From: Conexibacter woesei Iso977N
Lineage (GTDB): Bacteria; Actinomycetota; Thermoleophilia; Solirubrobacterales; Solirubrobacteraceae
Assembly (NCBI RefSeq): GCF_000424625.1
Contig: NZ_AUKG01000003.1
Coordinates: 310,001-374,000 of the forward strand
Direction: 5' to 3'
Length of the DNA stretch: 64,000 nt
Shown piece after piece: positions 32,526 through 36,117 of this stretch. The translations under genes were made by a program, and so were the position numbers. The notes beneath the pieces are model-generated. The model was given only the letters and a program-made list of their open reading frames with translations. It ran no database searches and was not told the origin of the DNA. Numbering within the stretch: position 1 is the stretch's first letter; each line of letters starts with the position of its first letter.

Positions 32526-33128
32526 TTGTTCGCTCCGCCCGTCCAACGCCTGGTCACCGAGCTGGGCAAGCTGCCCGGCATCGGCCAGCGCACGGCGCAG
32601 CGGCTCGCGTTCCACATCCTGCGGGTCGACCCGGAGGACGCCAACGCGCTCGCCGACGCGATCCGCGAGGTCAAGGAGAAGATCCGGCCCTGCGAGGTCT
32701 GCTTCAACCTGGCCGACGAGGCGCGCTGCCGGATCTGCCAGGACGAGCGGCGCGACACCGCGATCATCTGCGTGGTCGAGGAGCCGGGCGACATCGTCCC
32801 GATCGAGCGCACCCACGAGTTCCGCGGCCGCTACCACGTCCTCGGCGGCGCGCTGTCGCCGATCGACGGGGTCGACCCGGAGGACCTCAAGGTCGCCGAG
32901 CTGTACCGCCGCGTCGAGGGCGGCGAGGTCCGCGAGGTCGTCATCGCGACCAACCCGACGACGACCGGCGAGGCGACCGCGCACCACATCGCGGCCGCGC
33001 TGCGCGAGCGCACCCCCGACGTCGCGGTCACCCGCCTCGCCTCCGGCCTGCCGGTCGGCGGCGACCTCGAGTACGCCGACGAGGTCACGCTCGGCCGCGC
33101 GTTCGCCGGCCGACGCGAGATCGCGTAG
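32526..33128 (+). CDS. recR: Recombination mediator RecR
   Basis: A 200-residue protein, full family length. Helix-hairpin-helix LPGIGQRTAQRLAFH (residues 16-30), the Cys4 zinc finger CEVC...CRIC (56, 59, 68, 71), and a Toprim domain with VVEEPGD, IATNPTTTGEATA and RLASGLPVGGDLEYAD. It acts with RecFO to load RecA on gapped DNA. The start is TTG at 32526, 3 nt after the ybaB stop, with AGGA overlapping that stop region. Confidence 0.95.
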   Translation: MFAPPVQRLVTELGKLPGIGQRTAQRLAFHILRVDPEDANALADAIREVKEKIRPCEVCFNLADEARCRICQDERRDTAIICVVEEPGDIVPIERTHEFRGRYHVLGGALSPIDGVDPEDLKVAELYRRVEGGEVREVVIATNPTTTGEATAHHIAAALRERTPDVAVTRLASGLPVGGDLEYADEVTLGRAFAGRREIA

Positions 33129-33177: not shown

Positions 33178-33606
33178 ATGGCTGAGACCACCGACGTCGC
33201 CTTCACGACCATCAACTCCAACATCAGCGACCGGTTCCAGTCGCTGCGGCGGGAGCTGGGGGTCGAGGCGTTCGGGATCAACGCGATCGCGCTCGCTCCG
33301 CGCCAGCGCGGCCGGATCCACGACCACGCCGAGCAGGAGGAGGTCTTCCTCGTGCTCGACGGCGAGCTGACGATCGCGATCGAGGGCGAGGAGAGCAGGG
33401 TCGCCAAGAACGGCCTCGTCCGCGTCCCGTCCGGCGTCCGCCGCCAGCTCATCAACCGCGGGCCGGCGAACCTCCTGATGGTCGCGCTCGGCGCGGCGGG
33501 CGCGCACGTCGGCCGCGACGCCAGCGCCTGGGAGTCCTGGGACGAGGACCGCGACGCGGGCCGCACGCCCCAGGAGGTCCCGCTGCCCGCCGACCTGCCG
33601 GTCTAG
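33178..33606 (+). CDS. Cupin-domain protein
   Basis: A 142-residue single-domain beta-barrel. The metal-binding motif 1 reads GRIHDHAEQEEVFLVLDGEL and motif 2 follows with VRVPSGVRRQLINRGP. Two His and a Glu suit a divalent metal site; motif 2 lacks the usual His, having Arg in its place. The function is not predictable. ATG 33178 lies 49 nt after recR. Confidence 0.82.
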   Translation: MAETTDVAFTTINSNISDRFQSLRRELGVEAFGINAIALAPRQRGRIHDHAEQEEVFLVLDGELTIAIEGEESRVAKNGLVRVPSGVRRQLINRGPANLLMVALGAAGAHVGRDASAWESWDEDRDAGRTPQEVPLPADLPV

Positions 33607-33622
33607 CGGGCGGCCGCGGGCG

Positions 33623-34804
33623 TCACTTCACGCCGTACTGCGCGCGCAGCGCGTCGACGCGCCGCAGCGCGTCGGCCACGCGCGCGGTCGACAGCTTGCC
33701 GTCGCGCATCGCCTTGGCGATCGCCCGGACCGCGTCGGCCTGGTCGGCCGCGTCGCCCGGGATCCACACGAGGTCGCAGCCGGCGCGGATCGCCTGGACG
33801 GCGAGCTGCGCCGGGGACGCGCCGCCCGACAGCGACGCCGCCTGCAGGTCGCCGGAGACGACGACGCCGCCGAACCTCAGCCTCTCGCGCAGCAGCCTGA
33901 CCACGCCCGGCAGCAGCGTCGCGGGCGTCACGCCGTCCCACGCCACGTAGGTCGCCGACGACAGCTGGATCGCCGGCGCGTGGCCCGCGACCGCCGCGAA
34001 CGGCTTGAGGTCGCGCGCCTCCAGCTCCGGCAGCGACAGGCCGACCGTCGCGGCCTCCAGCGCCGGGTCGCCCGACGCCGCGCCCTCGCCCGGGAAGTGC
34101 CCCGGGACCGGCGCGACCTCGCCGTCCTTCCAGCCCGACACCGCCGCGGCCGCGTCGGCGCCGACGGTCGCCGCGTCGTCGGCGTAGGCGACGCCCTCCC
34201 ACGGCCCGCCCGCGAAGCCGATGTCGGCGTCCGGGCCCAGGACCATCCGGATCCCGAGCGGGTGCAGCGCCTTGGCCTCGGCCAGCGCGGCGGCGCGCGC
34301 GGCGCCCGCGCTGCGGGCGTCGGCCTGCGGCCTGCCCTCGACGGGGACCGCGTCGAGCTGGCCGCCGAGCTGCGAGGCGGCGATCAGCGGCGCCTGGTGC
34401 CCCGCGCCGGTCGCGGCGCCGCGCAGCGCGCCGGCGACGTCGGCGACCTGCTGGGGCGAGACGCCGTTGCCCGGCTCCAGCACGACGCCGCCCCACTCCT
34501 GCGCGGCGACGCGCCTGAGCAGGTCCGGCGACGCGGTCGGCCCGCCGAAGCCGATCAGCAGCAGCCGCGCCGCGGCGCGGGCGGCGGTCGTCGGCAGCCC
34601 GCCGGACGGGCGCGTGGTCGTCACGGAGGATGCGGGCGCCGTCGTGCTCGCCGGGACCGCCGTGCTTGCCGGTCCGGCAACGGTCGCGGTCGCCCTGCCG
34701 GAGGCCTTGTCCGACGTCCCGCAGCCGCTCAGGAGCACGGCGAGCAGCGCCGCCATGACGATCGTCAACGACCCGCCCGGGCCGATCCGGGTCGGTCTGG
34801 TCAT
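33623..34804 (-). CDS. Glycoside hydrolase family 3-like lipoprotein, catalytic residues apparently lost
   Basis: About 393 residues. A signal peptide with lipobox LLSGC (near residue 27) indicates a lipid-anchored protein, followed by a Ser/Thr/Ala linker and a GH3 N-terminal-like barrel. Family landmarks are altered: the usual KHFPGHG...DSH loop reads GHFPGEG...GDP, and the nucleophile segment SDDL or TDAL reads SGDL. The His/Asp dyad and the nucleophile are therefore missing. It may be a binding protein rather than a beta-N-acetylhexosaminidase. ATG 34804 is chosen; 34816 is possible. Confidence 0.75.
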   Translation of the reverse strand: MTRPTRIGPGGSLTIVMAALLAVLLSGCGTSDKASGRATATVAGPASTAVPASTTAPASSVTTTRPSGGLPTTAARAAARLLLIGFGGPTASPDLLRRVAAQEWGGVVLEPGNGVSPQQVADVAGALRGAATGAGHQAPLIAASQLGGQLDAVPVEGRPQADARSAGAARAAALAEAKALHPLGIRMVLGPDADIGFAGGPWEGVAYADDAATVGADAAAAVSGWKDGEVAPVPGHFPGEGAASGDPALEAATVGLSLPELEARDLKPFAAVAGHAPAIQLSSATYVAWDGVTPATLLPGVVRLLRERLRFGGVVVSGDLQAASLSGGASPAQLAVQAIRAGCDLVWIPGDAADQADAVRAIAKAMRDGKLSTARVADALRRVDALRAQYGVK

Positions 34805-34839
34805 GGCTTCACCCATCGACCATCTAGCATTGCGCGTCC

Positions 34840-36117
34840 ATGCCGGGCACCGTCGTCATGAAGTTCGGAGGCACATCCGTCGCGGACGCCGCGCGCCTCA
34901 AGCGCGCTGCGCAGCGCATCGTCGCCAAGCGGGAGGAAGGTACCCGCGTCGTGGCGGTCTTGAGCGCGCGCGGCAAGGAGACCGATCGCCTCATCGCCGA
35001 CGCGTTCGAGGTCAGTTCGACCCCCGACCCGCGTGAGATGGACATGCTCCTCTCGACGGGCGAGCGTGTGTCGTGCGCGCTGTGTGCCATGGCGATCAAC
35101 GATCTCGGTCATCGTGCGATCTCCCTGACGGGATCGCAGGCGGGCATCGTCACAGATACGAGCCACACGAAGGCCCGCATCCTCGAAGTCCGCGCCGATC
35201 GCATCAGGGCCGCGCTCGACGAGGACAACATCGTCCTGGTCGCCGGCTTCCAGGGCGTCAGCACCGCCAAGGACGTCACGACGCTCGGCCGCGGCGGCTC
35301 CGACACGACCGCGGTCGCGCTGGCCGCCGCGATCGGCGCCGACGCCTGCGAGATCTACACCGACGTGCCCGGCGTCTTCACCAGCGACCCGCGGATCGTG
35401 CCCGACGCCCGCAAGCTCGACGTCGTCACCTTCGACGAGATGCTCGAGATGGCCGCCTCCGGCGCCGGCGTGCTGCAGCTGCGCTCCGTCGAGTACGCCC
35501 GCAACCACGGCGTGCGCATCCACTGCCGTTCCAGCTTCGACGACTCCGAGGGGACGTTCGTCGTCTCCGATGAAGAGGCCAAGGACAAGAACATGGAGAA
35601 CCCCCTCATCACCGCCGTCACCCACTCGCGTGGCGAGGCGCGGGTGACGCTCATCGGCCTGCCCGACTCGCCCGGCATCGCGGGGCGCGTCACGACGGCG
35701 CTGGCCGACGCCAACGTCAACATCGACATGATCATCCAGAACGACCCGCGGTCGGCGGGCGCGAAGGCGGAGCTGTCGTTCACGGTCCCCAAGGAGGACG
35801 TGGACACGGCGCGGCGCGCGCTGGACCCGATCGCGAGCGAGCTGGGCATCGAGGTCCAGACCGACGACGGCATGGGCAAGGTCTCGATCGTCGGCGCCGG
35901 GATGAAGTCGCACCCGGGCGTCGCCGCGAAGGTGTTCAGCGTGCTGGGCGCCAACGGCATCAACATCGAGATGATCTCGACGTCGCCGATCCGCATCTCG
36001 TGCGTGATCCCCGTCGAGGAGGTCGAGCCGGCCGTCAAGGCGCTGCACACGGCGTTCGACCTGCAGGGGGCGGACACGATCCGCCCGGAGCAGCCGTTCG
36101 GAGAGTTCGCAAGCTGA
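34840..36117 (+). CDS. lysC: Aspartate kinase
   Basis: A 425-residue enzyme making aspartyl phosphate, first step to lysine, threonine and methionine. KFGGTS (residues 8-13), GFQGVSTAKDVTTLGRGGSD and the DVPGVFTSDPR segment mark the kinase domain. Two C-terminal ACT domains (about 265-425) carry the feedback-inhibition site. An in-frame ATG at 35593 with AAGGA 8 nt upstream could start a separate 174-residue regulatory subunit, as in Corynebacterium and Bacillus. TGATG overlap couples it to asd. Confidence 0.95.
   Translation: MPGTVVMKFGGTSVADAARLKRAAQRIVAKREEGTRVVAVLSARGKETDRLIADAFEVSSTPDPREMDMLLSTGERVSCALCAMAINDLGHRAISLTGSQAGIVTDTSHTKARILEVRADRIRAALDEDNIVLVAGFQGVSTAKDVTTLGRGGSDTTAVALAAAIGADACEIYTDVPGVFTSDPRIVPDARKLDVVTFDEMLEMAASGAGVLQLRSVEYARNHGVRIHCRSSFDDSEGTFVVSDEEAKDKNMENPLITAVTHSRGEARVTLIGLPDSPGIAGRVTTALADANVNIDMIIQNDPRSAGAKAELSFTVPKEDVDTARRALDPIASELGIEVQTDDGMGKVSIVGAGMKSHPGVAAKVFSVLGANGINIEMISTSPIRISCVIPVEEVEPAVKALHTAFDLQGADTIRPEQPFGEFAS

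What the first reader, a model, noticed from the sequence alone, without database searches (positions are those of the whole stretch)
33623..34804. GH3-family lipoprotein without catalytic residues
Compared with NagZ-type enzymes, the KHFPGHG...DSH loop has become GHFPGEG...GDP and the nucleophile Asp (SDDL/TDAL) is Gly in SGDL. Both catalytic elements are lost while the fold landmarks remain, so this is a likely pseudoenzyme, perhaps a surface peptidoglycan or sugar sensor.
Basis: partly seen in the sequence, partly recalled or inferred. Interest (0 to 1): 0.5.

Follow-up and report, generated by a model that had tools for sequence, protein, structure and literature searches.

The report
Membrane-anchored dead NagZ-like sugar hydrolase
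A cell-surface protein has kept the shape of a wall-recycling enzyme but lost its cutting residues, and its relatives at the same place in related genomes show the loss happening in steps while a new conserved site took the old one's place.

Summary
Window 33623-34804(-) encodes a 393-residue anchored GH3 N-terminal barrel (PF00933, E 1.8e-27; predicted fold 1.8 A from 6k5j over 322 residues). The nucleophile Asp is Gly318. The Lys of KHFPG and the Asp of (V/I)DQEGG are also gone. The missing DSH His is weak evidence: only 4 of 76 nucleophile-bearing relatives have it.

The gene belongs to a 43-protein clade (bootstrap 100), divergent from lysC in all 41 loci showing both genes. The clade branches by family. 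Its f3 and f2 members lack the DQEGG Asp (0 of 19) but mostly keep the nucleophile (17 of 19). The window's family, f1, lacks the nucleophile in 24 of 24, and in 23 of 24 the old acid/base loop reads GxGxASxDP.

The lipoprotein label fits the window but few orthologs: 4 of 23 have a lipobox. Most have a plain membrane helix, many with juxtamembrane motifs not seen in 74 canonical relatives.

Best reading: a membrane-tethered pseudoenzyme turned binding or scaffold protein. Its ligand is unknown and no activity was tested.

The parts
33623..34804 (-). CDS of the pseudo-NagZ protein (393 aa, P0001)
   Evidence: Pfam PF00933 E 1.8e-27
34721..34732 (-). lipobox-like L-S-G-C (residues 25-28), end of the signal/membrane segment
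   Evidence: sequence; 4 of 23 readable f1 proteins, this one included, have such a Cys after the segment
34595..34720 (-). low-complexity linker (residues 29-70); in many orthologs it carries E/Q[AG]GSxF and LLDALAPVL-like motifs, absent here
   Evidence: residues 1-67 have pLDDT under 50
33626..34591 (-). complete predicted TIM barrel (residues 72-393)
   Evidence: AlphaFold mean pLDDT 85.8 for the whole protein; 6k5j Z 45.9, rmsd 1.8 over 322 residues
34373..34375 (-). Ser144 in place of the Asp of (V/I)DQEGG
   Evidence: Asp in 74 of 76 canonical, 0 of 19 f2+f3, 2 of 24 f1
34190..34192 (-). Val205 in place of the conserved Arg
   Evidence: Arg in 76 of 76 canonical, 16 of 19 f2+f3, 17 of 24 f1
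34040..34102 (-). remodelled strand-5 loop, residues 235-255, GHFPGEGAASGDPALEAATVG
   Evidence: 10 of 21 positions conserved at 95% or more in f1 against 43 of 299 elsewhere
34064..34069 (-). Asp246-Pro247, invariant in f1
   Evidence: D and P each in 24 of 24 f1 proteins
33851..33853 (-). Gly318 at the nucleophile position
   Evidence: Asp in 76 of 76 canonical, 17 of 19 f2+f3, 0 of 24 f1
34840..36117 (+). lysC (aspartokinase), divergent neighbour whose position is conserved
   Evidence: opposite strand in 41 of 41 loci that show both genes, 43 loci given
32526..33128 (+). recR, the neighbour on the other side (with dnaX and ybaB upstream)
   Evidence: in view in 33 of 42 ortholog loci

Best explanation
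The gene encodes an envelope protein held at the outer face of the cytoplasmic membrane, by a lipid here and by a membrane helix in most orthologs. It carries an intact NagZ-type GH3 barrel that can no longer cleave a glycoside: the nucleophile is Gly, and the Asp, Lys and Arg that (recalled) hold the sugar in active NagZ are gone.

Shown: homology, predicted fold, the losses, their distribution along the tree, the fixed place beside lysC, and dN/dS below 1.

Inferred: an ancestor in this order carried a NagZ copy beside lysC. It first lost the DQEGG Asp (and mostly the Lys), so productive GlcNAc binding went first. In the window's family it then lost the nucleophile. The old acid/base loop became a new conserved site (GxGxASxDP) that binds a ligand or partner protein, so the protein now works as a tethered binder or scaffold in the cell envelope. 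In many relatives juxtamembrane motifs may give it a second contact. The ligand is unknown; muropeptide-like material or an envelope protein are the likeliest guesses.
For: Residue table over 119 proteins, P0001 included: nucleophile Asp in 76 of 76 canonical, 17 of 19 f2+f3, 0 of 24 f1; DQEGG Asp in 74 of 76, 0 of 19 and 2 of 24; Lys in 74 of 76, 4 of 19 and 0 of 24. The tree, built without those columns, gives a 43-protein clade (100/99) with f1, f2 and f3 each one group and f1+f2 together (99/95) (wider tree). The nucleophile changes three times, all inside that clade. Position: divergent from lysC in 41 of 41 loci that show both. Fold intact. Strand-5 loop conserved beyond the rest. dN/dS 0.60 for window against L006, 0.62 for a nucleophile-bearing pair at 62% identity. 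Juxtamembrane motifs: SFLxx(hydrophobic)2P in 12 of 14 f2, E/Q[AG]GSxF in 15 of 23 f1, none in 74 canonical relatives. In 6 of 30 genomes holding the gene it is the only PF00933 match, so it does not depend on an active GH3 partner there.
Against: No activity or binding was measured. The window protein lacks the linker motifs, and none of five f3 proteins has them. His236 of the old KH pair remains here and in 10 of 24 f1 (this one included). Ten sampled genera of the family show recR and lysC without the gene, so it is dispensable. Constraint looks relaxed beside f2: two f2 pairs give dN/dS 0.27 at 68-73% identity, whereas f1 pairs at 67-70% give 0.43-0.60. L023 (f1) reads out of frame over part of its N-terminal half. 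The linker motif was not placed on the barrel with confidence (pLDDT 50-70). Model coordinates could not be read, so pocket geometry was not checked.
Confidence: 0.6

Rival explanations
1. It is an enzyme with a relocated or new mechanism: Asp246 and Asp319 at the mouth of the barrel catalyse a different reaction.
For: Asp246 is in 24 of 24 f1, and position 319 is Asp in 20 and Asn in 4 of 24. The strand-5 loop is highly conserved.
Against: Position 319 is also Asp in 39 of 76 canonical relatives beside an intact nucleophile, so it is not a substitute. Other conserved polar residues (Ser282, Tyr286, Asp290, Asp344) are shared with many canonical proteins.
Confidence: 0.13
2. It is a decaying gene with little or no function left.
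For: Catalytic residues are lost. None of 18 recR-lysC gaps examined in genomes without the gene holds a recognisable GH3 ORF (5 of the 18 gaps are under 150 bases). dN/dS is higher in f1 than in two f2 pairs. L023 looks frameshifted in its N-terminal half.
Against: Apart from L023 and L020 (cut by a contig end) the f1 reading frames run through the domain without stops. The barrel is predicted intact. The strand-5 loop is more conserved than the rest. dN/dS is 0.29-0.67 in 11 f1 pairs, under 1. The clade spans three families.
Confidence: 0.09
3. It is a sugar or peptidoglycan sensor in the first reader's sense: it binds GlcNAc-containing fragments in the old -1 site and signals.
For: The barrel and anchor are kept. 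Related lipoprotein NagZ enzymes such as LpqI act on muropeptides (PMC6572805, passages).
Against: Residues thought to hold GlcNAc are lost together with the nucleophile. Pfam shows no fused signalling domain in the window protein.
Confidence: 0.15
4. It regulates an active GH3 paralog in the same cell, as a dead partner.
For: The window genome has three other PF00933 proteins; the closest paralog, L069, keeps the nucleophile. The other two were not checked for it.
Against: In 6 of 30 genomes searched (three f1 genomes at 96-98% completeness, one f1 at 82%, two f2) the syntenic protein is the only PF00933 match. Draft genomes can miss genes.
Confidence: 0.06

Closest known systems
NagZ / GH3 beta-N-acetylglucosaminidase (6k5j Paenibacillus, 3bmx B. 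subtilis YbbD)
   Same: Complete barrel, rmsd 1.8 A over 322 and 320 residues; FPGxG loop frame; LR and GxD landmarks.
   Different: No nucleophile, none of the Lys/Arg/Asp of the sugar site, no DSH. Scores 65.5 bits against NCBIfam's NagZ cut-off of 207.
LpqI, lipoprotein NagZ of mycobacteria (6gfv)
   Same: Actinobacterial envelope-anchored GH3 domain; Z 38.7, rmsd 2.2 A over 312 residues.
   Different: LpqI is an active GlcNAc hydrolase (PMC6572805, passages). The loop letters of LpqI itself could not be brought into view.
5bu9, beta-N-acetylhexosaminidase of Beutenbergia cavernae
   Same: Same barrel, Z 40.1. Like most canonical relatives here it has NTD where NagZ has DSH.
   Different: Keeps KH and the TDD nucleophile motif. 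Its activity was not looked up.
Pseudoglycosidases of other families (for example GH18 narbonin and chitinase-like lectins; recalled, from no call)
   Same: A glycosidase barrel that lost catalysis and became a binding protein.
   Different: Another family. None of my literature listings showed a described GH3 case of this kind (open-licence papers only).

Membership tests
GH3 N-terminal domain (PF00933) | Profile match above the curated cut-off | tested here: met
   97.1 bits against cut-off 27
GH3 N-terminal domain (PF00933) | Complete barrel superposing on GH3 structures | tested here: met
   predicted model; 6k5j Z 45.9, rmsd 1.8 over 322 residues
NagZ beta-N-acetylglucosaminidase | Asp nucleophile after strand 7 | tested here: not met
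   Gly318; 0 of 24 f1 proteins have Asp
NagZ beta-N-acetylglucosaminidase | Acid/base His in the strand-5 loop (DSH) | tested here: not met
   Ala248. His is also absent in 72 of 76 nucleophile-bearing relatives, so weak as a test
NagZ beta-N-acetylglucosaminidase | Asp of DQEGG, Arg and Lys that hold GlcNAc (roles recalled) | tested here: not met
   Ser144, Val205, Gly235
NagZ beta-N-acetylglucosaminidase | Score above NCBIfam NF003740 cut-off | tested here: not met
   65.5 bits against 207
NagZ beta-N-acetylglucosaminidase | Hydrolysis of GlcNAc-anhydroMurNAc | not testable with these tools
   no assay
Pseudoenzyme | Homologous to an enzyme family with its catalytic residues lost in a whole lineage | tested here: met
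Pseudoenzyme | Kept by purifying selection | tested here: met
   dN/dS 0.29-0.67 in 11 f1 pairs, 0.24-0.62 in 3 canonical pairs, 0.27 in both f2 pairs; moderate, not strong, constraint
Pseudoenzyme | No activity when measured | not testable with these tools
   no assay
Lipoprotein | Lipobox with Cys after the signal segment | tested here: met
   LLSGC in the window protein by sequence; 4 of 23 readable f1 proteins

The most novel reading that the evidence does not exclude
A NagZ copy fixed beside lysC turned, step by step, into a new class of membrane-tethered envelope adaptor. The glycosidase pocket was rebuilt around a conserved GxGxASxDP loop that binds a new ligand or partner. In many members a short juxtamembrane motif (SFLxx-hydrophobic-P in one family, LLDALAPVL with EAGSxF in another) docks to a second partner, linking wall state to a membrane machine.
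Probability: 0.3. Interest if true: 0.72.

Novelty: new variant of a known kind. Interest (0 to 1): 0.5.

Why it matters
Loss of catalysis is usually seen as an endpoint. Here one position-conserved gene keeps intermediate stages in living families: sugar-site residues lost with the nucleophile kept, then the nucleophile lost and a new conserved loop gained. That lets the order of events in enzyme-to-pseudoenzyme evolution be tested by expressing f3, f2 and f1 orthologs side by side. It also warns annotation pipelines: the family matches the GH3 profile well above its cut-off, yet the window's family should not be counted as NagZ activity. In 6 of 30 genomes holding the gene it is the only GH3 match, so inferring muropeptide recycling from it could be wrong.

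Tried and rejected
Rejected: (a) that the Asp in SGDL is a displaced nucleophile; it aligns to the next residue, and canonical relatives often have both. (b) That the absent DSH His proves inactivity; it is absent in most nucleophile-bearing relatives too. (c) That a diverged GH3 hides in the recR-lysC gap of genomes lacking the gene: no ORF in 18 gaps reached whole-sequence E 0.1 with profiles of the clade or of all rows, best 0.11; five of the gaps are under 150 bases and could hold none. (d) That the linker motif docks on the barrel in cis: the L006 model gives a short helix at pLDDT 50-70, inconclusive. (e) An obligate active GH3 partner.

Led nowhere: the genome-contig scan found one distant Chloroflexi relative. 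The promoter and terminator scan found nothing. The LpqI loop letters could not be brought into view. I ran two structure jobs, one Foldseek search and one VIA search; coordinates are not readable, so distances in the pocket were not measured.

Rows left out: L003, L004 and L005 as duplicates of L069 or of the window gene; L001 and L002 had no match to P0001 (93 of 95 loci matched). Of the 110 matches listed, 90 are in the alignment (the window's own included); 20 short, partial or weak ones are not. Of the list, which was itself cut, 28 further matches were used. One more row (L035) came. The canonical set is therefore a sample by similarity, not a census. Of the 28 genomes with lysC, 20 were fetched and two more.

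Full report
What is there. The minus-strand ORF 33623-34804 encodes 393 residues. A signal or membrane segment ends in LLSGC, a low-complexity linker follows, and residues 72-393 form a GH3 N-terminal domain. Pfam PF00933 matches at 1.8e-27, 97.1 bits against a cut-off of 27. NCBIfam's NagZ model scores 65.5, far below its cut-off of 207. Solved GH3 enzymes are the best sequence matches (4zm6, 6k5j, 3tev). The AlphaFold model has mean pLDDT 85.8, with low confidence in residues 1-67. Foldseek puts 6k5j first at 4.5e-23, and VIA-align gives it Z 45.9 with 1.8 A over 322 residues.

The active site. In the printed alignments the nucleophile Asp is opposite Gly318, and Asp319 is the residue after it. 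The KH pair is Gly235-His236. Where NagZ has DSH the protein has Asp246-Pro247-Ala248. The Asp of (V/I)DQEGG is Ser144. The roles of that Asp, the Arg and the Lys in holding GlcNAc are recalled from NagZ work; the Asp-His dyad of NagZ is stated in PMC6572805 (passages).

Relatives. Of 101 near genomes (the window's own included), 66 have a match at 1e-5. Of 399 genomes of the class, 215 have a match at 1e-20 with the profile of 19 close relatives. I aligned 119 proteins (the window protein and 118 loci) and read the key columns. They fall into 24 proteins of the window's family (f1), 14 of f2, 5 of f3, and 76 others called canonical here because all 76 have the nucleophile.

Counts. Nucleophile Asp: canonical 76 of 76, f3 4 of 5, f2 13 of 14, f1 0 of 24 (Ala 14, Gly 9, Ser 1). 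Asp of DQEGG: 74 of 76, 0 of 5, 0 of 14, 2 of 24; the two (L012, L022) stand beside an alignment gap, L020 has no letter there, and L023 reads out of frame in that region. Lys of KHFPG: 74 of 76, 0 of 5, 4 of 14, 0 of 24. His of KHFPG: 75 of 76, 2 of 5, 11 of 14, 10 of 24. Arg: 76 of 76, 5 of 5, 11 of 14, 17 of 24. The DSH His position holds His in only 4 of 76 canonical proteins (Asp 64, Glu 8), so its loss is no mark of this family; 5bu9 also has NTD there.

Tree. With the trait columns left out, f1 is one side of a branch in both trees. In the 119-row quick tree it sits with f2 and f3 in a 43-row group (SH-aLRT 99). In the careful tree of 72 rows (the 43 plus 29 of the 76 canonical) the 43-row group has 100/99, f1 100/99, f2 100/98, f3 100/99, and f1+f2 99/95. 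The branching follows the families, as expected for vertical descent. On the quick tree the nucleophile needs three changes, the DQEGG Asp five, the Lys five and the Asp at 246 eleven. The three nucleophile changes are f1 as a whole, L030 (f3, Ser) and L116 (f2, Glu); none falls among the 76 canonical proteins. Since f2 and f3 lack the DQEGG Asp but mostly keep the nucleophile, the sugar site went first. That order assumes the root lies among the canonical proteins.

Place in the genome. For all 42 clade members besides the window I looked at the neighbours. One search was given 43 stretches (those 42 plus L222, a partial copy not in the tree): 41 show both lysC and GH3, and in all 41 they are divergent on opposite strands; in the other two the contig ends first. 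One (L169) has about 2 kb more between them. recR was in view in 33 of the 42. In L147, L148, L149, L163 and L164 it was not found in the stretch taken, so lysC is the firmer neighbour. None of six canonical loci looked at (L176-L181) showed lysC or recR. In the window the two start codons are 23-35 bases apart, depending on the GH3 start chosen. Of 21 stretches from genomes without the gene there, 18 show both recR and lysC, with other genes or little between them and no GH3 ORF; ten f1 genera are sampled only in that state. Whether they lost the gene or never had it was not worked out.

What replaced the site. In f1 the strand-5 loop reads GxGxASxDP in 23 of 24 (L021 has Ala for Ser): Gly239, Gly241, Ala243, Asp246 and Pro247 are each in 24 of 24. 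Residues 235-255, a range I chose after seeing the alignment, hold 10 of 21 positions at 95% or more against 43 of 299 elsewhere (Fisher p 0.0006); the whole upper face of the barrel shows a weaker excess (16 of 56 against 37 of 264, p 0.016). Part of this (FPGxG) is inherited from NagZ. Asp-Pro together is typical of f1: position 246 is mostly Ser in f2+f3 and Asn in canonical proteins, 247 mostly Thr in both.

Selection (a simple counting method). Eleven f1 pairs give dN/dS 0.29-0.67 (window against L006 0.60). Three canonical pairs give 0.24-0.62. Two f2 pairs give 0.27, lower than f1 pairs of like identity. The gene is under constraint, comparable with the canonical pairs, but relaxed beside f2.

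Anchor and linker. Of 23 f1 proteins with a readable N-terminus, 4 have a lipobox Cys after the hydrophobic segment (window, L021, L022, L112). L006 and L007 have a Cys at its start, which is doubtful. The other 17 have a plain hydrophobic segment. Just outside the membrane, 15 of 23 f1 carry E/Q[AG]GSxF and 10 of 23 a LLDALAPVL-like motif, while 12 of 14 f2 carry SFLxx(hydrophobic)2P. None of 5 f3 and none of 74 canonical relatives with enough N-terminus has any of the three. The patterns were written after seeing the f1 and f2 sequences, so for those the counts describe and do not test. The window protein and L007 lack the motifs; the window's nearest relative L006 has both f1 motifs. The L006 model makes the second motif a short helix at pLDDT 50-70.

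Dependence on active enzymes. PF00933 was searched in 30 genomes holding the gene. In six the syntenic protein is the only match: G013, G016, G023 and G350 of f1, G064 and G374 of f2. A strict role as partner of an active GH3 is therefore unlikely, with the caution that drafts can miss genes.

Literature. Searches for pseudoenzyme with GH3 or glycoside hydrolase, and for catalytically inactive GH3 or NagZ, gave no listing that describes a GH3 pseudoenzyme of this kind; two of them found no paper at all. Only open-licence papers are held. PMC6572805 was read in passages; all other papers were seen only as listings.

Verdict. The relatives show that the loss is old, stepwise and kept, and that the lipid anchor and the DSH argument are secondary. 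What it binds is open.

Noticed in passing
L030 (f3) and L116 (f2): Two further orthologs have lost the nucleophile independently (Ser and Glu at that column), so loss recurs in this gene lineage.
   Followed up: partly
L006, L009-L013, L016-L019, L023, L105, L106, L109, L113: Juxtamembrane motif E/Q[AG]GSxF, in 10 followed by a LLDALAPVL-like motif; 12 of 14 f2 orthologs have SFLxx(hydrophobic)2P in the same place. Partner unknown.
   Followed up: partly
L126, L129, L143 (family f9): In another family of the class some GH3 proteins with an intact nucleophile have also lost the KHFPG Lys or His, or the DQEGG Asp, perhaps a separate start of decay.
   Followed up: no
L023 (f1): Part of the N-terminal half of this ortholog reads out of frame against its relatives: a frameshift or an assembly error.
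   Followed up: no
window 33178-33606 (+): A small cupin-like ORF (named by eye, no family search) lies between recR and the GH3 gene; a similar one was found only in L146 among the loci.
   Followed up: no
window 34804-34840: The GH3 and lysC start codons are only 23-35 bases apart, head to head; no sigma-70-type promoter match was found in 33500-35100.
   Followed up: no
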